Source: Chelatococcus sp. HY11
GTDB taxonomy: Bacteria; Pseudomonadota; Alphaproteobacteria; Rhizobiales; Beijerinckiaceae
Direction: 5' to 3'
Assembly (NCBI RefSeq): GCF_018398335.1
Contig: NZ_JAHBRX010000001.1
Coordinates: 248,001-312,000 of the forward strand
Length of the DNA: 64,000 bases
Shown: positions 6,801 through 51,119 of the stretch, one piece after another
How positions within the stretch are numbered: the stretch's first letter is position 1
How the letters are laid out: each line of letters starts with the position of its first letter
Translations under genes and position numbers: made by a program
The notes under the pieces: model-generated
The model's database searches: none
What the model saw: only the letters and a program-made list of their open reading frames with translations
What the model was told of the DNA's origin: nothing

Positions 6801-7672
6801 AGCTCATGGCGCAGGACCCCATTCGGGCTGAAGCAACCGTGGTCCGCGACACGATCGCGCGTGAGCTCGATTTGGCGAACTGGCCGCTGACCGAAGTGGT
6901 GATGCCCTTGACCCTGTCGGGGGGAACGTTGCGTTTCGGGCCCGTCACGATCGACAGTCGGGATGTGCAGCTGCGGCTCGCGGGCTCAGTGGAACTCGGG
7001 TCGCTCACCCTCGACGCACGGGGGCTGATGGTCTCCAGGCAGTTGCCGGTGGGCTGGAGTGGAGCCGCTCCCGAGATTGCCGTGTCGTGGCGTGGGCCGC
7101 TGACCGATCCCGGCCGCAGTGTCGAGGCGGCCGCGCTCGCCAATGGTCTCGCGGTGATCGCGCTTGCCCGCGAGCTCGATCGTATCGACAAGCTGGAGGC
7201 GGACGCGAAGGAGCGCGCCGAGCGGATCCGTCAGCTGCGTCTTGAGCGTGAACGTCTGGCGGCGGAGAAGCGTGCCGCGGAACAGCGCGACAATCAGGAA
7301 CGGAACAGTCAGGAACGCAATGGCCTGGACGGGGGCGGCTTGGACCCGGCGACAACCGGTGGCACCAATAATCTTCCGTCGCAGGCGCCACTGCCTCCCG
7401 CCGCTCCACCACCGGTCTCGCCGCGTTCGGAGATCCCGACGATCGTTCCGTCCTTCGCCGGCGATGAGAACACAGCGATCGGTGAGGGAGATGGCGCACC
7501 ACAGGAACGTGCTTCGCTGAGCAGCCATGGCGTCAGGCCCGCCCAGCCAGCCCGCGTTCCGGCGCCGACTGCCATGGGACTATCGATTCCAACCGGCGCG
7601 CAACCCTCGCCGCGGGCACGGACAGGTGCGCCGCTCGACCTTACGCCACCGGGCTATGCTCCCCTGCGATAA
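3830..7672 (+). CDS. AsmA-family inner-membrane-anchored periplasmic protein
   Basis: Large member (1280 residues) of the AsmA/TamB-like family, thought to act in transport of phospholipids between the membranes or in outer-membrane assembly. An N-terminal membrane segment (ILTIIAGLIVLVLCAALAVP, residues 4-23) is followed by the typical AsmA start YFVDWDARRGDVE and RLLPSPRVILGRVTIG. The long beta-rich middle part repeats short Gly/Leu/Asp strands. The tail contains a charged coiled segment (LDRIDKLEADAKERAERIRQ onward, about 1110-1160) and a low-complexity Pro/Gly/Asn C-terminus. Start is GTG at 3830. No partner gene is adjacent. The following RHH/DUF4169 genes run towards it. Confidence 0.88.
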   Translation: MRDILTIIAGLIVLVLCAALAVPYFVDWDARRGDVELALSRALGLPVITQGDINLRLLPSPRVILGRVTIGTPAAGRPGITANELSVELETTALLSGAVRVVEARLVRPVVTAVVGDDGRVMLPELSNSIPMPITAFGIEKLVVDAGQLRLIEAEGGVRDIGPISGEIQAVALSGPWRIAGQVGNIPLRLSTGTIDAEGRLRVKGGIGELTSPHLDIDGDLLLTTATPAGGGSRAFAPGFNGRLGAVIPLPQADTARADAAQDAAQPPSALMVTATVTTAGRRLKAETVEVTTANGGSSLALAGTGELDFGRSGPVLSMALTSRRLEITQGTDLAGRVGEIGERLVTTLPSLKASIGVQAASFAIAGEEFGPLDLAVGRENGKATVERFNLAGAGDARLEASGSVDFGTETAFSGRVAFGIREPARLALSLGRIGLSRPLIEAISALPASRAVADLSMSSAVLAARNIRFTAGDATLSGLFRYTPPTGAERARFDAQLAGKGLDLANIPLLDAGVGGLTGADLGLSIDLEAPRFGTIASPGGRLKARVTRDAEALTIASAEMTNVDGANMKLAGRIGRDGGQIDGGLTAPRPAVIAALAARFLPPSFAETLQRVAPLAAPLTLALKAERRDASAPVLATLEGQGGGTAFRTALSLPAPGAGQTAQGSDASVWMELTARDGVDLLRQLGVDVVPLPGLGEGRLIFDAKGRTLADLAGTAELRVAGATLSLAGRLGGTGQAGDPPPLAQGKVKLATDDLAPLAQVLARSFPGLLPGTGAHLEADGQLSAQGVVFTGLKGEVAGAPVEGRLAINETGQIDGTLRVPRLRLTDLTALALGPVSPPTRGQIWSSQRFVPAMPPVAGKVELGFGRLDVIEGITLADGKLGLDLTSDAITLRDVSGGFGGGSVLANVKLQRQGTLAAATGNVALKDVEASALFGKGPGGRLSGRMEAGSSGESVAALVANMSGGGELRSVGSLIARLDPAGIARGLGKLMAQDPIRAEATVVRDTIARELDLANWPLTEVVMPLTLSGGTLRFGPVTIDSRDVQLRLAGSVELGSLTLDARGLMVSRQLPVGWSGAAPEIAVSWRGPLTDPGRSVEAAALANGLAVIALARELDRIDKLEADAKERAERIRQLRLERERLAAEKRAAEQRDNQERNSQERNGLDGGGLDPATTGGTNNLPSQAPLPPAAPPPVSPRSEIPTIVPSFAGDENTAIGEGDGAPQERASLSSHGVRPAQPARVPAPTAMGLSIPTGAQPSPRARTGAPLDLTPPGYAPLR

Positions 7673-41566: not shown

Positions 41567-41642
<76 letters not shown>

Positions 41643-41730: not shown

Positions 41731-42789
41731 CTATGTTCCCGTTGCGTACCTCGCTCCCAGCTTCGCAATTGCTATTTCTGCAAGCTCGAGACGGCCGCCC
41801 AGATAGTGCGCATCGAGGATCGCTTCCACGTCTTTCAAGCTATGGCCGGTGATCGAAGCGATCTCCGGCACGGTGCATCCGGACAGCGCCAAGCGCGTCA
41901 CGGCAGTGCCTCGCAGATCGTGGAAATGCAGGTCGCCAAGGCCCGCACTTTCATGCGCCTTGTTCCACGAGGACCGGAATCCGCTTTCCGTCCATGGATG
42001 GCCGTGGCGGGAGTTCACCAGAATATGCGTCGATGCACGCTTGCCGCGATCGATCGCGTCCAGAGACACGCGCAGCGGCTCGCCTACAGGAATCGTGACG
42101 CGCTTCCGCGTCTTGCCCTGACGCAGCCGAATCGTCTTGCCGTCATAGGCCGACCACGTGAGCGCGAGCAGATCCCCCTGCCGCTGCCCGGTCCATAGTG
42201 CCAAGAGTAGAGCGAACTGAAGCTCCTCGGAGGCCGCGGCACAGAACGCCGTGATGTCCTCGGCACTCCAAATTTTCTCCGCCCGTTCCGACTCATAAAG
42301 CCGGCCACCGCGTTCGCACACGTTGACCGCGATCCGTCCGTTGTCTTTCGCCACCGAAAGGACTCGCGCCAGCGTCGTCCAAGCATAGTCCGCCTTGCGT
42401 GGCTTTGCTGCGAAGCTGTCGCGCCATGCCTTGAATTCGCCGCGGCTCTTCGGGTGCTCGACCACGCTAACCGGCATGGTCCCGAACTCGTCTTCGATCA
42501 GCCTCAGATAGCGCTCGTAGTCCCGCTGCGTCTTCTGCGCGAGCGTGGTGAACTCCGATGACTTCCGGTACTCGTCGACCAGCTTGAACAGCGTGCCCTC
42601 AGTGGGCCGCCTCCTTGCCCTCTGAGCGTCGGTATAGGCCACGAAGAACCTCGGATCCTCCGGCTGCAGGGGAGTGCCGTCGGGAGCCTTGAGAAGTGGC
42701 CCACCGCGCCACGCATAAAAGTAGGTCCGCCGCGTCCCATCTGCGAGGATCTTAGTGGCCCGTGCCACGCCTGGCAGCTTTTGCCGCAT
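41731..42789 (-). CDS. Phage tyrosine-family integrase
   Basis: Site-specific recombinase for integration and excision. 352 residues: N-terminal core-binding domain (EYRKSSEFTTLAQKTQRDYE and following) and C-terminal catalytic domain with Arg in LLALWTGQRQGDLLALTWS, the HxxR pair in LHFHDLRGTAVTRLALSG, His in SITGHSLKDVE and Tyr in ILDAHYLGG. ATG 42789 was chosen because the family begins MRQKLPGVARA; the frame is open 20 codons upstream, inside the excisionase gene. Its position beside the tRNA-Lys defines the left end of the prophage. Confidence 0.95.
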   Translation of the reverse strand: MRQKLPGVARATKILADGTRRTYFYAWRGGPLLKAPDGTPLQPEDPRFFVAYTDAQRARRRPTEGTLFKLVDEYRKSSEFTTLAQKTQRDYERYLRLIEDEFGTMPVSVVEHPKSRGEFKAWRDSFAAKPRKADYAWTTLARVLSVAKDNGRIAVNVCERGGRLYESERAEKIWSAEDITAFCAAASEELQFALLLALWTGQRQGDLLALTWSAYDGKTIRLRQGKTRKRVTIPVGEPLRVSLDAIDRGKRASTHILVNSRHGHPWTESGFRSSWNKAHESAGLGDLHFHDLRGTAVTRLALSGCTVPEIASITGHSLKDVEAILDAHYLGGRLELAEIAIAKLGARYATGT

Positions 42790-43030
42790 CGCGCTCTCGC
42801 TTCCACTTGTCGAACTCGTCTTCGGGCTCAGCCTCCGCGCCGATCCCACTCGCCTTGTTGAGGTGGGCGTCGATTGCCAGACGGTCCCACCTCTTCAGCC
42901 CGACCAGCGCCGGAGGCAGCAGGCCAGCCTCCACCCACTTGGTGAACGTCGCCACACCAGCCCCACAATAAGCGGCCGCCTCCGGGCGCGTCATTAGCCG
43001 CTTGGGGCTGTTGTCGTTGGCTGCTGCCAC
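42752..43030 (-). CDS. AlpA/excisionase-like helix-turn-helix protein
   Basis: 92 residues with a winged/MerR-like helix-turn-helix: MTRPEAAAYCGAGVATFTKW, VEAGLLPPALVG, KRWDRLAIDAHLNK. This is the usual form of small excision regulators read just before an integrase. Its end overlaps the integrase start by 38 nt. The C-terminal tail is highly charged (DEFDKWKRERDAAKAARRG). Likely role: directing excision or regulating int. Confidence 0.85.
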   Translation of the reverse strand: MAAANDNSPKRLMTRPEAAAYCGAGVATFTKWVEAGLLPPALVGLKRWDRLAIDAHLNKASGIGAEAEPEDEFDKWKRERDAAKAARRGTGH

Positions 43031-45539: not shown

Positions 45540-45762
45540 CCCACCGCCCTCTATGCCCTCGCCAGCCACGCTTGTCCCCAACCTCAGCTCGCCTGAGGGT
45601 ATTCCCCCCAATCTGGCTGGGGGGATGTGTCGCCCAGCGGCGGAATGTTTTTGTAGCCTGTTCCCCATTGTGCCCTCGTTGTCAGATATCCGGCGCACGC
45701 GGCGCTTCGATGACAACCAAGGTGGCATAACAAATGGTATTGGTCAATTAGTATTTGTGAGA

Positions 45763-46467
45763 TTAGTACGGCCGGCCGCTGAAAACAATTTTATGCATAT
45801 GCCGTACACGCTCGATCGGGATGGCCAGGTCTTGCTCCGGGTTAAACTGGTGCAGGATTAGTGATTCGTCGTCCTGTGAAACAAACTGCTTCACGATCCC
45901 CTCCGTGGGTTCCGTCTCGCCGCTTTCAGCCAACTGCACGACCACGAAATCGCCCCTCGCGACAGGAAGGCGAGGGTGCACGTAGACCCTCTCCCCGGCG
46001 TAAAATCGCGGAACCATCGATTCACCGTAGCAGTACACCACATAGCTGCCAGCAACGTTTGCCAGCTCAGGCGGAGCGGGGACCGTATCGTATGTCGTGT
46101 CGGAAATATGGAATGCGCCAGCGTTGCCGCCCGCAGCCACGCCCAGAACAGGGAGCTCCTTCGCAAGTGGCGGACCCGCCGGAATCATGGGGACGACTGT
46201 TGTCACGCCACTCGGGCTACGATGCTGCCCTTTGACTCGGAAAGGCGTTCGGACTTCCCGCGGAGACATCTTGTTTGGCGATAGGCCGTGAATTTCTAGG
46301 GAAAGCCCCAAAACGTCGACGAGCGCCTTTAGATTCCTAGGCTCGGCGACGTCCCCGCGCTCGATGGCTGCAATTGCCTGCTGGGACAGGCCGACTTTCT
46401 CACCAAGGGCAGCCTGGCTGAGTCCCATTGCAGTGCGCGTTTCGCGTACCAGTTCGCCAAGCGTCAC
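45763..46467 (-). CDS. CI-like phage repressor, XRE HTH plus S24/LexA peptidase domain
   Basis: 234 residues. N-terminal HTH (TAMGLSQAALGEKVGLSQQA, residues 13-32), linker, probable self-cleavage site Ala-Gly around 112-113 in VAAGGNAG, and the serine-lysine peptidase core with Ser150 in YCYGESMVPRF and Lys193 in EGIVKQFV. RecA-stimulated self-cleavage would induce the prophage after DNA damage. The start is GTG 46467, decided by AAGGAGG 6 nt upstream. Diverges from the early operon across an operator-like region. Confidence 0.93.
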   Translation of the reverse strand: MTLGELVRETRTAMGLSQAALGEKVGLSQQAIAAIERGDVAEPRNLKALVDVLGLSLEIHGLSPNKMSPREVRTPFRVKGQHRSPSGVTTVVPMIPAGPPLAKELPVLGVAAGGNAGAFHISDTTYDTVPAPPELANVAGSYVVYCYGESMVPRFYAGERVYVHPRLPVARGDFVVVQLAESGETEPTEGIVKQFVSQDDESLILHQFNPEQDLAIPIERVRHMHKIVFSGRPY

Positions 46468-46535
46468 CGTCGCCTCCTTCAAAAAATAATTGTCGTTGTG
46501 CCACAACGGGTTGGCGAGCGCAACTAATTTCCCGT

Positions 46536-46578
46536 TTGACAATTTGGTGATTCTTATGCAAATTGTTTGTACAAATTG
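46536..46578 (+). promoter_or_regulatory. Early promoter/operator region with CAAATTG repeats
   Basis: A consensus -35 TTGACA at 46536-46541 overlaps CAATTTG (46540-46546). Two direct CAAATTG copies follow at 46559-46565 and 46572-46578, with TTTGTACAAA between them. The arrangement fits several repressor sites over the rightward early promoter. A -10 box could not be fixed. Confidence 0.55.
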
Positions 46579-46593
46579 ATGAGGGCCAACCAC

Positions 46594-47121
46594 ATGTCCG
46601 CACAGTTCGATGTCCACACGCCACCAGATTCCCCCGCAGAGATCGCTGCGCAACTCATTGCCGAGTCCGGTGGCGACCGTGACGCCGCGACGGACCGTTT
46701 AGCTGCCATCGCCCGCCGAAGGCCGGAATGGCACCATGAAATCATAAGAAGATGGGCCACAGCTTTGGTCGGCGAGGCCGCCCGCTCGCGCAACATGACA
46801 ATTCGCGCCAGTAGTGTCCCCAACACCGCCGCGACCGAGCGGGCGAACGAAAGGGCACGCGCCTATGGCGGAGCGGCTGCGGAGTCTTTGCTTTGCTACG
46901 AGCTGCGCGTGAACGGCAAGTCGGTTCATCTCGGCGATGCGACCGCGGCGCAGGTCGCGGAAGTGGCACGCCGATACATGTCGCAGGGAAGCGCGATGGT
47001 CCGTACGGGACAGTGGTTGCAAAGAATTGCTGCCGCGGTGCCTGATGGCAAGCTCGTGCGCCAAGTATTTAGCGCCAGAGAATTGGGGCGACATCAGTCG
47101 TCCCGAAGGAAAGCCGCGTGA
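46594..47121 (+). CDS. Early phage protein of unknown function
   Basis: 175 residues starting MSAQFDVHTPPDSPAEIAAQ; helical, basic (AAIARRRPEWHHEIIRRWAT), with a basic tail RQVFSARELGRHQSSRRKAA. GAGGG 8 nt before ATG 46594 supports this start over ATG 46579. First gene of the rightward early operon, directly after the operator region, a usual place for antirepressor, Cro-like or replication regulators. No family recognised. Hairpin array 1 begins 6 nt after its stop. Confidence 0.72.
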   Translation: MSAQFDVHTPPDSPAEIAAQLIAESGGDRDAATDRLAAIARRRPEWHHEIIRRWATALVGEAARSRNMTIRASSVPNTAATERANERARAYGGAAAESLLCYELRVNGKSVHLGDATAAQVAEVARRYMSQGSAMVRTGQWLQRIAAAVPDGKLVRQVFSARELGRHQSSRRKAA

Positions 47122-47126
47122 GCGGC

Positions 47127-47398
47127 GGGGCGGGCCAACAAGAGCGCGCAACCCATTGGTGCATCGCCCGCCCCAAATTTTTTGAACTCGTGGGCCAGGA
47201 CTTCGACGAAACCCATTGCTCTGTCGCCCACGTACCCAATCGGCTGGCCATTCCCTATTCGCAACCCAGAACAGGTACGCCAGCCACCCTCATCGATGGG
47301 GCCACCCAGATCGCACAACCCATTGTATTCGCGCCCCATCCCACCCCTTGCTGCGGGCCACTGCACGAGCGCAACCCATCGAGCCTCCGCCCTCAGCA
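47127..47398 (+). repeat. Hairpin-repeat array 1: five hairpins with 30-nt AACCC loops
   Basis: Five tandem hairpins fill the gap between two early genes: 47127-47174, 47189-47232, 47242-47285, 47295-47340 and 47351-47396. Each stem closes with GGC...GCC, and the outer pairs differ but stay complementary (GGGGCGGGC, CGTGGGC, GGCTGGC, GATGGGGC, CTGCGGGC). Every loop is exactly 30 nt, begins CA, has AACCCA at loop positions 15-20 and ends in C. The rest of the loop varies. Spacing is 53-62 nt. Shared loop length with compensated stem changes points to selection on folded RNA or single-stranded DNA. Strand is given in transcription direction of the operon. Confidence 0.88.
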
Positions 47399-47415
47399 CC
47401 CCAAGGAGAACACCC

Positions 47416-48381
47416 ATGCTATCCGTCGCCGAGATCGCCGAATCGACTACCCGAAATTCACGAATTGCTGCTGGCCACAGCGGACGCGGAACCCAGGCCA
47501 CGCGCGCCAGCAGCAACACTAACCGAAGCGAGGGGGCCACCCCAGGCGCGCCACCCACAATAGAGCCGCTCCCTCGCTTCGCCACCCCAGACGCCGTCCC
47601 GCTTGCGCCCTACGAGCCGACGGCCGAGATCACGCAGACCACCGACCAAATCATCGAAATTTGGCGGCTAAGGCAGGACATGGTCTCGGCGCAGACCAAA
47701 TTGACTCTGCAAGCGCTCGCGCTTCTCCGCCGCGCCGTGGGCGGCGATAAGAAAGAGGCCGCCGCTATATTCGCCGCCGTCAAAAATGGCGAGCCGCACC
47801 GCCTGGCCGCGCACGTCCTGCCGCACCTTGCCGCGCTGGAGCCCATCGAAAGGCAACGCGCGGCCTATGAGAAATCCCTCGTAAAGCTCGTCAGGACGTT
47901 GCCGATCCATGCGTGGGCCAAGTCCGTTAAAGGGCTCGGCGACCTCTCCCTTGCCGGCATCGTAGGGGAATGCGGAGACGTGGGCACTTACAAGAGCGTC
48001 TCGGCGGTTTGGAAGCGCATGGGCCTTGCGGTGATCGACGGCAAAGCCCAGGGCCGGCCGGGGCAGGGCGCAACGCCCGATGATTGGGTGACGCACGGCT
48101 ATAACAAGCGCCGCCGCTCAGTGTCCCGCGTCGGGCTCCAGTACGTGATTGGCAGCATGGGGCTCTATAGGGCGCCGTTCGGCGCGGATGACCCCGGAGC
48201 TACCGAGTACCAGAAGGTCTTTACCGACCGCGCTCGATACGAGGCGCAGGCGCTCGGCTTGCCAGTCAAAGAGTCCAAGACAGGGAAGGATTCCTATGAC
48301 GCGCACGTCGCAAACCGCGCGCTGCGGTATGTCGAGAAACGCGTTCTAAAACATCTCTATCTTGAATGGCGGCGCTCCTAG
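47416..48381 (+). CDS. IS110-transposase-like protein (Tnp_20-type C-terminal domain only)
   Basis: 321 residues. The C-terminal half matches the IS116/IS110/IS902 domain: helix-hairpin-helix VKGLGDLSLAGIVGECGDVG (171-190), YKSVSAVWKRMGLAV, RSVSRVGLQYVIGSMGL (235-250) and VANRALRYVEKRVLKHLYLE (298-317). Upstream is a helical segment (76-160) like the coiled linker of IS110 enzymes. The DEDD RuvC-like domain is absent, and the usual catalytic Ser-Gly after G-L-x-P is replaced by GLAVIDGKAQG (203-213). So it probably binds nucleic acid without recombining it. AAGGAGAA sets the ATG at 47416; the frame upstream runs through the hairpins. Hairpin arrays flank it on both sides. Exact function unknown. 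Confidence 0.8.
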   Translation: MLSVAEIAESTTRNSRIAAGHSGRGTQATRASSNTNRSEGATPGAPPTIEPLPRFATPDAVPLAPYEPTAEITQTTDQIIEIWRLRQDMVSAQTKLTLQALALLRRAVGGDKKEAAAIFAAVKNGEPHRLAAHVLPHLAALEPIERQRAAYEKSLVKLVRTLPIHAWAKSVKGLGDLSLAGIVGECGDVGTYKSVSAVWKRMGLAVIDGKAQGRPGQGATPDDWVTHGYNKRRRSVSRVGLQYVIGSMGLYRAPFGADDPGATEYQKVFTDRARYEAQALGLPVKESKTGKDSYDAHVANRALRYVEKRVLKHLYLEWRRS

Positions 48382-48389
48382 CGCTGCCT

Positions 48390-48555
48390 GGGGCGGGCCA
48401 ATGGAGGTGCGTAACCCGGCAGCCAGTCGCCCGACCCACACGCCGATCGGAACGTTGCGGCGATACGGCCAGCGAAACCCACGTACCATTCGCCTCGCGT
48501 TCCGACCAGCGGCTGGCCAAGAAGCCCTCGCAACCCACCACTGGTACGCCAGCCG
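48390..48555 (+). repeat. Hairpin-repeat array 2: three hairpins with 30-nt AACCC loops
   Basis: Three further members of the same family between the IS110-like gene and the next gene: 48390-48437 (9 bp, one mismatch), 48448-48504 (long stem CGGAACG/CGTTCCG plus GGC/GCC with one bulge and one mismatch) and 48510-48555 (CGGCTGGC/GCCAGCCG). Loops are again 30 nt with AACCC at loop positions 15-19 and a final C. The second starts GA instead of CA; the first has G instead of A at position 20. Spacing is 56-63 nt. Confidence 0.87.
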
Positions 48556-48579
48556 TCCCCCTTTTCGCACACAGGTGCC

Positions 48580-48801
48580 ATGCCCCACATCCCGCGAATA
48601 ACGCCCCTTGAGCTGATGTGCCCAGGATTCGAGTCCGACACGGGAATCTGTCTCTCGATCGCCAGGGGTGCCGTTCGGCTGACCCTGAACGACAACGAAG
48701 CGCGTGAGCTCATGGATTTCCTGAAGGAGAATCCGAGGCTGAAAGATCGCGCGAAAGGCGGAAGGAACGTCAAGGCCAAATATAACAGGCGCTCACCATG
48801 A
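48580..48801 (+). CDS. Small phage hypothetical protein
   Basis: 73 residues: MPHIPRITPLELMCPGFESD, a strand pair (CLSIARGAVRLTLNDNEARE) and a basic tail (RAKGGRNVKAKYNRRS). Its stop overlaps the primase ATG by 4 nt (ATGA), so translation is coupled. No family recognised; may assist the primase. Confidence 0.68.
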   Translation: MPHIPRITPLELMCPGFESDTGICLSIARGAVRLTLNDNEARELMDFLKENPRLKDRAKGGRNVKAKYNRRSP

Positions 48802-51119
48802 CCCTCCTAACACCCACCACGCCCACGGCGCTGACGCCGTATAACCAGACCGGCAGTACCCTCGTCGACCAGGGCTTTAGCGCGATCCCATGTCGGCCTG
48901 GATCCAAGAGGCCAGGCTCCTACAGTTATGGGCAATGGTACGGCCGGAACGATTGGCAACAATACTGTTCTCGCCTTCCGACCGACTATGAAACCCGCGC
49001 TTGGGAGCGTTGGCCGGACGCTGGTGTCTGCGTGGCCCTGGGCTATGCGGGCCTCATAGCGGTCGACATCGATACGGACGACCCGGAGCTGTGTGCAGCG
49101 CTGGCTGCGGTCATCCCCGAATCCCCGATAATGAAAAGAGGGCAAAAGGGTTTTACGGCTTTCTATACCGGGCCTGACAGCATCAAGTCGGCCGCCTTCA
49201 ATGTGAACAACGAGCGCGTCGTGGACCTCCTGGCTCACGGCAAGCAGACGGTCGTCCCGCCAACGATTCACCCGGAGACGCAACGGCCTTATCAATGGAT
49301 AGGCGAGGCGCTCGAAACCACGACGCCCGATCGCCTGCCCACACTCCCCGCTGACATCGCCGAGCGCATCGCGGAAGCTTTGTCCCCGTTTGGATACGCC
49401 CCGACGCATACCCCCAGGCCGCAAGGCGATGGCTATGGCCACTCAATTTGGCGCGACCTCAACGCCAAGGCGCTCGAAGACCTCGACGCGTGGGTGCCTG
49501 CGCTCGATCTCCCCAAATGCAAAAAGACGCCACGCGGCTACGTGGCTGTGCCGTTCTGGCGACCGTCAAATCGCGGCCGGCCCACCCACCAGCGCAACCC
49601 GAATCTGAAAATCACCCGCGACGGTATCAAGGACTTCCATGACGGGGATCGCGGTTACACCGCCCTCGACGTCGTCATGGAGGCGCTCGGTTGCGGGCTC
49701 GACTTCGCGGACCAGTGGTTGCGTGAAAAGCTCGGCTACCAGGAGCCGGACCTTTACGGGCTCGAAGCCTGGTTCCCGAAGGTCGCTGCCACGGAATCCG
49801 CGCCCGAGCCATCCGAGCCCCAGCCTGTCGCGGCACCACGTGCCAACGTCAACCCGTTCACGCCGTCTGCTGCCGGCGGGCTCCTGCAGGCCATCTCCCA
49901 GTGGGTCTTGGACAATGGACGGCGTCCCGTGCCTGAGTATGCCGTCATGGCCGCCACGACGTTCCTGGCGGGTCTGTACGGCCGTCGCTGCGTCGGACCT
50001 ACCGGCGCGGGGCTGAACGTCTACTTCGTGGGCTTGGGCTCCTCTGCCCACGGAAAGGGGCATCCGTTGAAGGCACTCAAGACCCTGGCCGTCGACACCG
50101 GCTTGCAGCAGCTCGTCGTTGCCGGCGACTTCACGGCCGACAGCGCCATCGAGCGCGCCCTGCGACGCTCCCCGTCCATGGTCGTGGCGTGGGACGAGTT
50201 CGGGCTGGTCCTCCAGGGTGTGAACGGCAAGAACGCATCCTCCTGGACGCGCACGGTTCGGCGCGCGCTCCTGGAGGTCTACAGTCTGTCGGCGGACATG
50301 TGGACCGGCAAGCAGTATGCGGATCCGAAGCGCGACGATCCCGAGCCGATCTTCTGCCCCACGCTGTCGATCCTGGGCATGACCACGCCTTCAACGTTCT
50401 ATGACGGTCTGGCGGACGGCAACCTATCGGACGGCTTCCTGAACCGCATGACGGTCATCCACGCCACCGAGACGCCCGAGCGCCGTAAGGCGCCTCCGGT
50501 GATGATCACGCCGCCTTCGTTGCAAGCGGCCATCAAGGATGCGGCAAATACCCAGTTCGGCCGGGGCAACCTCGCAGGCGCAAACCACCGTGATTCCCGC
50601 GCCAGGCCCCCCCTCCACGTCGTCGAATGGGACAGCCCCGCTGTCGAAGCCCGCTGGCTTGAAATCGAGGATTGGCAGATCGCCGAGATCGAGGAGCGCA
50701 ACGGCGTCGAGGGCATCATCGGGCGCACCGCCGAGCAGACGATCAAGCTCGCCACCATCCGCGCGCTGTCCCGTGACGGCGCCCGAGCGCGCGTCACACT
50801 CGACGATGTTGAGTGGGGTTACGCCGTCGTGCAGCGCTCTCTTGATTGCCTCGATCGCGGCGTGCGTGAGCACATGGCGTCAAGCGAGTTCGAGTCCCTC
50901 TGCAAGGCGATCGTCGCCGCCCTGCGGAAGGCAAAGGACGGGTCGATGGGCATGGCGTCACTGTTGCGCGTCAAGGGCATCTCACGATCCGAGGACCGGC
51001 ACGTCAACGCCGCCATCGACAGGCTGGTGCGGATCGGGGAGGTGACCAAGGTCCACAACCCGAGGCGCGCCGGATTCAGCCTCAAACTGACGGAGGGCTA
51101 TGATGTAAAACCGGTGTAG
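48798..51119 (+). CDS. Phage primase-polymerase / DUF3987 helicase-like replication protein
   Basis: 773 residues. The N-terminal half is a PrimPol-type domain (FSAIPCRPGSKRPGSYSYGQ, metal-binding IAVDIDTDDPE near 92, KGFTAFYTG with GKQTVVPPTIHPE). The C-terminal half is a DUF3987 P-loop helicase-like domain with GLGSSAHGKGHPLKALK (about 411) in place of a standard Walker A, VVAWDEFGL (about 461) as Walker B, and a C-terminal winged-helix-like end (RVKGISRSEDRHVNAAIDRL). It would start and unwind phage DNA. The iteron-like region after its stop is a likely origin. Confidence 0.88.
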   Translation: MTLLTPTTPTALTPYNQTGSTLVDQGFSAIPCRPGSKRPGSYSYGQWYGRNDWQQYCSRLPTDYETRAWERWPDAGVCVALGYAGLIAVDIDTDDPELCAALAAVIPESPIMKRGQKGFTAFYTGPDSIKSAAFNVNNERVVDLLAHGKQTVVPPTIHPETQRPYQWIGEALETTTPDRLPTLPADIAERIAEALSPFGYAPTHTPRPQGDGYGHSIWRDLNAKALEDLDAWVPALDLPKCKKTPRGYVAVPFWRPSNRGRPTHQRNPNLKITRDGIKDFHDGDRGYTALDVVMEALGCGLDFADQWLREKLGYQEPDLYGLEAWFPKVAATESAPEPSEPQPVAAPRANVNPFTPSAAGGLLQAISQWVLDNGRRPVPEYAVMAATTFLAGLYGRRCVGPTGAGLNVYFVGLGSSAHGKGHPLKALKTLAVDTGLQQLVVAGDFTADSAIERALRRSPSMVVAWDEFGLVLQGVNGKNASSWTRTVRRALLEVYSLSADMWTGKQYADPKRDDPEPIFCPTLSILGMTTPSTFYDGLADGNLSDGFLNRMTVIHATETPERRKAPPVMITPPSLQAAIKDAANTQFGRGNLAGANHRDSRARPPLHVVEWDSPAVEARWLEIEDWQIAEIEERNGVEGIIGRTAEQTIKLATIRALSRDGARARVTLDDVEWGYAVVQRSLDCLDRGVREHMASSEFESLCKAIVAALRKAKDGSMGMASLLRVKGISRSEDRHVNAAIDRLVRIGEVTKVHNPRRAGFSLKLTEGYDVKPV

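What the first reader, a model, noticed from the sequence alone, without database searches (positions are those of the whole stretch)
47122..48579. Arrays of constant-loop hairpins flanking a catalytically stripped IS110-like protein: candidate undescribed RNA-protein system
Eight hairpins in two arrays fill both non-coding gaps around the gene at 47416-48381 (47127-47398 and 48390-48555). All have 30-nt loops with AACCC at loop positions 15-19 and a GGC/GCC inner clamp, while outer stem sequences change in a paired way. The protein between them resembles the C-terminal domain of IS110 recombinases, which use structured bridge RNAs made from the non-coding flanks of their gene. Here the RuvC domain and the Ser are missing. 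Inference: a domesticated bridge-RNA-type protein that binds the hairpins, serving phage replication, regulation, or competition with real IS110 elements. I do not recall a described system with this make-up.
Basis: partly seen in the sequence, partly recalled or inferred. Interest (0 to 1): 0.9.

Follow-up and report, generated by a model that had tools for sequence, protein, structure and literature searches.

The report
TIGR-TasA guide array in a prophage
The hairpins are a guide-RNA array of the recently described TIGR-Tas family, with a nuclease-free partner protein in a bacterial virus; comparing relatives shows that the guide segments are replaced slot by slot in a fixed hairpin scaffold, two of them inside the partner's own gene, which bears on how such arrays change.

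The parts
47416..48381 (+). tasA, solo Nop-domain protein of 321 aa; residues 1-61 disordered, coiled coil and Nop core about 70-321; no nuclease domain seen
   Evidence: NF052498 1.5e-20; 9MTY; AlphaFold2 and fold search; Shine-Dalgarno-like AAGGAG before the ATG
47127..47174 (+). TIGR unit 1: A ACAAGAGCG, B TTGGTGCAT
47189..47232 (+). TIGR unit 2: A GGACTTCGA, B TTGCTCTGT
47242..47285 (+). TIGR unit 3: A TTCCCTATT, B GAACAGGTA
47295..47340 (+). TIGR unit 4: A CCCAGATCG, B TTGTATTCG
47349..47398 (+). TIGR unit 5: A CTGCACGAG, B TCGAGCCTC
47465..47516 (+). TIGR unit 6, inside tasA (residues 17-34): A CAGCGGACG, B GGCCACGCG
47524..47581 (+). TIGR unit 7, inside tasA (residues 37-56): A CCCCAGGCG, B CAATAGAGC
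48389..48438 (+). TIGR unit 8 (C box of the loop is CCG): A ATGGAGGTG, B GCAGCCAGT
48449..48503 (+). TIGR unit 9, weak (scan gives 48456-48497; outer GGAACG/CGTTCC read by eye): A TACGGCCAG, B CGTACCATT
48509..48556 (+). TIGR unit 10: A AGAAGCCCT, B CCACTGGTA
46594..47121 (+). conserved partner gene directly before the array (stop ends 5 nt before unit 1); start taken as the ATG at 46594 (in-frame ATG at 46579 and TTG at 46567 also exist; the piece aligned and folded began one codon later, 46597); no known family
45763..46653 (-). S24-type phage repressor on the opposite strand (ORF as listed; true start probably further in); suggests that the array operon is an early, repressor-controlled one (inferred)

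Best explanation
This is a TIGR-TasA system of the stem-loop-array kind in a prophage. Partner gene, array and tasA are packed so tightly behind a divergent repressor that they are probably one early transcript (inferred). Each hairpin is cut out as one guide (shown in print for another stem-loop TasA locus, not here). A dimer of the nuclease-free TasA holds the two box C and two box D motifs, and the two 9-nt spacers pair with opposite strands of an adjacent 18-bp DNA target, so that the target strand reads A followed by the reverse complement of B (orientation inferred from the paper's cleavage data for TasR). TasA lacks a nuclease, so it should block or bend the target, not cut it (inferred). 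The spacers are replaced slot by slot while stems, loops and slot order persist (shown). The likeliest reason is that the targets are changing competitors, above all other phages (inferred). Sub-claims: membership in TIGR-Tas about 0.95; guided DNA binding about 0.85; competitors as main targets about 0.55.
Against: The TIGR_Tas_endo score is under that model's cut-off of 100 bits. No target was found for the window's guides: one search shows no excess over control geometries; the one frequent match (unit 10, a phage methyltransferase in 15 IMG/VR contigs) is exact in INPHARED only in phages of Gardnerella and Pseudomonas and has no match with fewer than 2 mismatches in 397 related genomes. 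The capsid match is one of 39 guides tested, and the second of the 39 with an exact match hit only those unrelated phages. No expression data. The structure model is middling (mean pLDDT 67, seven sequences). More distant Tas-like hits (L015, L017-L020, L022) show 3 or fewer units of this layout within the 1.5 kb fetched.
Confidence: 0.82

Rival explanations
1. A domesticated IS110 protein that binds many small bridge-like RNAs.
For: Weak matches to IS110 models and fold similarity to IS621 and ISCro4.
Against: Both IS110 and Transposase_20 are far below their cut-offs (30.9 of 140 and 12.9 of 21.3 bits); Tas structures match better; array of single-target units, not one two-loop RNA.
Confidence: 0.05
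2. TasA guides act on the phage's own or its host's genes (regulation, lysogeny, or help to the integrase).
For: TasA has no nuclease; the module lies beside the repressor; the paper lists regulation and help to integrases as options.
Against: Spacers differ in most slots between closely related prophages; two guides shared by two loci have no match with up to 2 mismatches in four genomes of the genus except their own units (gap 0 only); no near-perfect site in the window or the related prophage regions beyond chance. Only these guides and regions were tested; the whole host genome was not searched with the window's own guides except unit 10.
Confidence: 0.25
3. The hairpins are not guides but structural elements (attenuators, protein or packaging sites) whose loops drift freely.
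For: No expression evidence; no targets for the window's guides; a few spacer pairs are partly alike.
Against: Constant 9-nt segments between conserved boxes, the anatomy of TIGR arrays, beside a Tas-like protein in ten of ten close loci examined; of 72 spacer comparisons 8 are identical and 8 have 5-8 of 9 bases equal, about 4 of which chance would give, so most changes are wholesale.
Confidence: 0.06
4. The two 'in-ORF' units lie before the true start of tasA and are not translated.
For: The Nop core begins near residue 70; a later in-frame ATG exists (residue 89, about 47680).
Against: Strong Shine-Dalgarno-like AAGGAG before 47416; MLSVAEIA.ST.RNSR is kept in four loci and a similar peptide precedes the units in others; between the three close relatives, differences before and after the units are few and mostly in third positions after them, inside them even over all three.
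Confidence: 0.12

Closest known systems
TIGR-TasA with a stem-loop array (Peromyscus gut contig, Faure et al. 2025, PMC12045711)
   Different: Here spacers and loop are all 9 nt, units also lie inside tasA, a conserved partner gene is present, and stems keep slot-specific sequences between loci; whether the published locus shares any of this was not checked
TIGR-TasR / TIGR-TasH
   Same: Nop core and coiled coil; nearest solved structures
   Different: No HNH or RuvC domain here; hairpins instead of dual repeats
IS110/IS621 with bridge RNA
   Same: Related RNA-binding domain
   Different: No RuvC-like domain, below IS110 cut-offs; many single-target units
Box C/D snoRNP (Nop5/Nop56/58)
   Different: Described TIGR relatives guide DNA binding, not RNA methylation; fibrillarin and L7Ae were not looked for here

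Membership tests
TIGR-Tas | Tas protein with a Nop domain | tested here: met
   but NF052498 is under its curated cut-off (74.1 of 100 bits)
[quoted passage not shown]
   Ten units, all spacers 9 nt
TIGR-Tas, stem-loop subtype | Palindromic, variable stems in place of edge repeats | tested here: met
TIGR-Tas, TasA type | No nuclease domain | tested here: met
   Residues 1-61 low confidence, matches span about 69-321; no HNH or RuvC model among hits up to E 1
TIGR-Tas | Array processed into Tas-bound guide RNAs | not testable with these tools
   Needs RNA sequencing
TIGR-Tas | Both spacers pair with opposite strands of one DNA target | tested here: inconclusive
   One guide of a relative fits; none for the window beyond chance
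IS110 transposase | N-terminal RuvC-like (DEDD) domain | tested here: not met
IS110 transposase | Curated model score | tested here: not met
   30.9 bits against 140; PF02371 12.9 against 21.3
IS110 transposase | One bridge RNA with target and donor loops | tested here: not met
   Ten separate units with one A/B pair each
Box C/D snoRNP | RNA methylation with fibrillarin and L7Ae | not tested
   No such genes were looked for
CRISPR | Identical repeats with single spacers | tested here: not met
   Units differ in stems and carry two 9-nt spacers; cas genes were not searched for

The most novel reading that the evidence does not exclude
TIGR stem-loop arrays evolve as fixed, slot-addressed scaffolds in which 9-nt spacers are exchanged in place against competing phages, and guide slots inside tasA make the tasA mRNA its own guide precursor, so that cutting out or TasA-binding of those units limits TasA synthesis; the conserved partner protein may serve spacer exchange or guide maturation.
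Probability: 0.3. Interest if true: 0.85.

Novelty: new variant of a known kind. Interest (0 to 1): 0.64.

Why it matters
The TIGR-Tas paper names spacer origin, natural targets and the role of nuclease-free TasA as open questions. These loci offer a natural experiment: almost the same module in related bacteria with new guides in old slots. That suggests that spacers are replaced without array growth, unlike in CRISPR, and it names concrete, culturable phages and a concrete partner gene to test. Guides inside an effector's own coding sequence would be an unusual dual use of one stretch of RNA.

Tried and rejected
Rfam gave only tmRNA and tRNA in the window. Target search in DNA held here, two duplex geometries plus colinear controls: 99 guides against about 0.36 Mb (two of the 99 were stray rows outside arrays and two hand-added P2 units were missing), 99 guides against 0.14 Mb of two Rhizobium phages, then 127 distinct guides against 0.70 Mb in 52 loci. 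Beyond sites that had been fetched because they match, the only matches with at most one mismatch were one in the expected geometry, in a gene that I read as host metabolism, and one in a control geometry. The joined-guide DNA search of the own genome had no candidates and shows nothing. IMG/VR pattern scans of four guides gave 1, 1, 15 and 2 contigs; one control geometry gave 1. The first lies on a contig whose ORFs look to me like a levivirus (no search) and is taken as chance; the second is a contig of P10VF's own length (156,446); the 15 all lie in one gene, a phage DNA methyltransferase (phrog_498; first seen), at the motif RSPYQW; the last two were not examined. That gene family is listed in 280 INPHARED records, 158 of them of Streptococcus or Gordonia phages (40 rows shown), and the guide's exact hit in Pseudomonas phage CRC2 is not in such a reading frame, so I do not claim it as a target. 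The 2-mismatch matches (48 of 397 genomes) were not examined further; the control pattern there also matched often. BLAST against INPHARED covered 39 guides in nine calls: 2 of 39 had an 18/18 match. In the five queries joined without spacers, at least 5 of 340 junction windows had exact 18-base matches, none in Rhizobium phages. Only held a built-in positive control (found); the matches sat at the E-value limit, so misses are possible. Gaps of 1-2 were not tested by BLAST.

A and B spacers of one unit are not more alike than at random. The partner protein has no Pfam family up to E 1 and only PHROGs matches of E 0.13 or worse, and no PDB fold match at E below 0.001. Supplementary files of the TIGR paper could not be read, so I cannot say whether its tables list this locus.

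Full report
WHAT IS THERE. The window holds part of a prophage in an alphaproteobacterium (alpha tmRNA): integrase at 41731-42849 beside tRNA-Lys 41567-41642, S24 repressor, primase, then terminase, portal and head genes. Between repressor and primase lie a partner gene (46594-47121), five hairpins, tasA (47416-48381) and three more hairpins. Two further hairpins lie inside tasA at 47465-47516 and 47524-47581. Every unit reads: stem ending in GGC, CA, nine bases, CG, three bases, CCCA (CCCG in unit 8; CA for CG in unit 4; GA for CA in unit 9), nine bases, C, then GCC (GCT in unit 7) and the other arm. Eight units pass a strict score; none do in 500 shuffles of the same DNA or elsewhere in the window.

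HOW IT PROBABLY WORKS. From the paper's cleavage data (8-nt 3' overhangs, cut 5' of the base paired to the fifth spacer base) I infer that the target strand reads A followed by the reverse complement of B. A nuclease-free TasA should bind, bend and block such a site; that step is inference. Unit 1 begins 5 nt after the partner's stop codon, and a promoter-pattern scan found no sigma-70 site in 45700-49000 (1.0 expected, weak evidence), so one early transcript is likely.

SPACERS CHANGE, SLOTS STAY. The own genome carries a second copy, P2 (81% protein identity); two genomes of the genus carry one each (G015, G055), and 7 of 397 family genomes have a match at 1e-10 or better. P2, G015 and G055 each have 12 slots (two P2 units, one with a degenerate C box and one with a 31-nt loop, were added by hand). 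Their Nop-coding DNA is 93-95% identical; the aligned chromosome and prophage blocks around them are 82-98% identical (P2-G015 and P2-G055). Stem arms are 272/288 and 274/288 identical; as three of the eight stem positions are the constant clamp, the remaining five are about 91% identical. Loops are 292/324. Spacers are 121/324 for A and for B: of 36 comparisons each, 4 A and 4 B are identical; of the other 64, 8 have 5-8 of 9 bases equal, where unrelated spacers would give about 4. G055 and G015 share both spacers of units 4 and 6 and nearly those of unit 3; P2 and G055 share unit 7; P2 and G015 share only spacer B of unit 12, so one spacer can change alone. Unit 2 of P2 and G015 is partly alike (7/9 and 6/9), which may mean stepwise change. 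The window against these three, units 1-7: stems 317/336, spacers 96/378, the chance level. In six other loci 19 unit pairs with at least 20 of 24 equal stem bases have 24.3% spacer identity; all pairs have 26.2%. These 19 pairs are not independent, and the weaker ones may be alike by GC-rich convergence; four share 23 or 24 of 24 bases, and their spacers match at 1, 8, 5 and 4 of 18.

GUIDES INSIDE THE GENE. Nine-base spacers are three codons, and the 30-nt loop is ten, so a swap keeps the frame. Between P2 and G015, differences in the segment with units 6 and 7 fall 14, 14 and 11 on codon positions 1-3; after it 2, 0, 10; in the Nop part 6, 1, 34; before it, in 48 bases, 2, 0, 1. The segment is thus read as protein but shaped as guide. 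Judged by the first in-frame ATG, units also lie in the gene in L006, L007, L077, L078, L080, L011 and L014, not in L008. Starts in L011 and L014 are uncertain; with the later ATGs that I prefer, L078 (2360) has three and L080 (2111) four. If such units are cut out or bound by TasA, tasA expression should fall: an autoregulation hypothesis, untested.

LIMITS OF THE ARRAY LAYOUT. Of the more distant Tas-like hits, L011 and L014 have arrays of this layout; on the coding strand within 1.5 kb, L012 has 6 rows, L013 and L015 3 each, L018 1, and L017, L019, L020 and L022 none, by a scan tuned to 30-nt loops.

PARTNER GENE. A protein of 174-215 aligned residues without known family lies near tasA in all seven loci aligned (20-28% identity to the window's; downstream in L080, about 0.9 kb away with another ORF between in L078). 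In 394 family genomes it was found in three, all of this genus, always beside tasA; in G055 it is in two pieces about 1.5 kb apart. I did not check that the four more distant genomes with TasA-like hits were among those 394. Its predicted model has pTM 0.46.

TARGETS. Of 39 guides tested against INPHARED, two have exact 18/18 matches. One, from the R. esperanzae prophage (L007 unit at 6880-6937), lies in the major capsid gene of Rhizobium leguminosarum-type phages P10VF, RL38J1, RL2RES and AF3 (AF3 has no host in the record), gap 0, inferred geometry. Chance matches do occur (at least 5 of 340 junction windows), none of them in Rhizobium phages; I estimate from recall that such phages are about 1% of that collection, so the host match is the weight of the evidence. 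The other, window unit 10, is probably chance or points to an unknown phage's methyltransferase. No guide tested has a convincing target in its own phage or host.

NOVELTY. Searches of the open-licence library showed one paper that, by title and abstract start, reports TIGR-Tas experiments; the rest I saw as listings only. TasH structures released in 2026 are in the PDB; their papers I did not see. The kind is known. In-gene guides, slot-wise replacement and the partner gene are not in the text that I read; the supplement could not be opened.

Noticed in passing
L005:1501-2463 with units 1212-2793 (G000 C1:116897-117856): A second TIGR-TasA module in the same genome, 81% identical protein; no spacer is shared with the window in the slots compared.
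   Followed up: yes
L005:2646-2666: A 21-nt palindrome, ATGACGGCCGTCGGCCGTCAT, between hairpins of the downstream array; G055 has a similar one. Could be an operator.
   Followed up: no
window 48509-48556 (unit 10): Its target sequence occurs exactly in 15 IMG/VR contigs, all in a phage DNA methyltransferase at RSPYQW.
   Followed up: partly
G055 C1:3043463-3045357: The partner gene beside tasA is in two pieces about 1.5 kb apart.
   Followed up: no
L022:25-1953 (G000 C3 near 48203): An open frame whose first part looks (by eye) like a serine recombinase and whose end looks IS110-like; a third, weak TIGR_Tas match in the own genome.
   Followed up: no
L010 and L009, unit 6: The reverse complement of spacer B resembles the array's own loop, so its target differs from its own unit by only two bases.
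   Followed up: no
L014:776-1341: Eight regular hairpin units all lie in one long open frame that runs into the Tas-like protein.
   Followed up: partly
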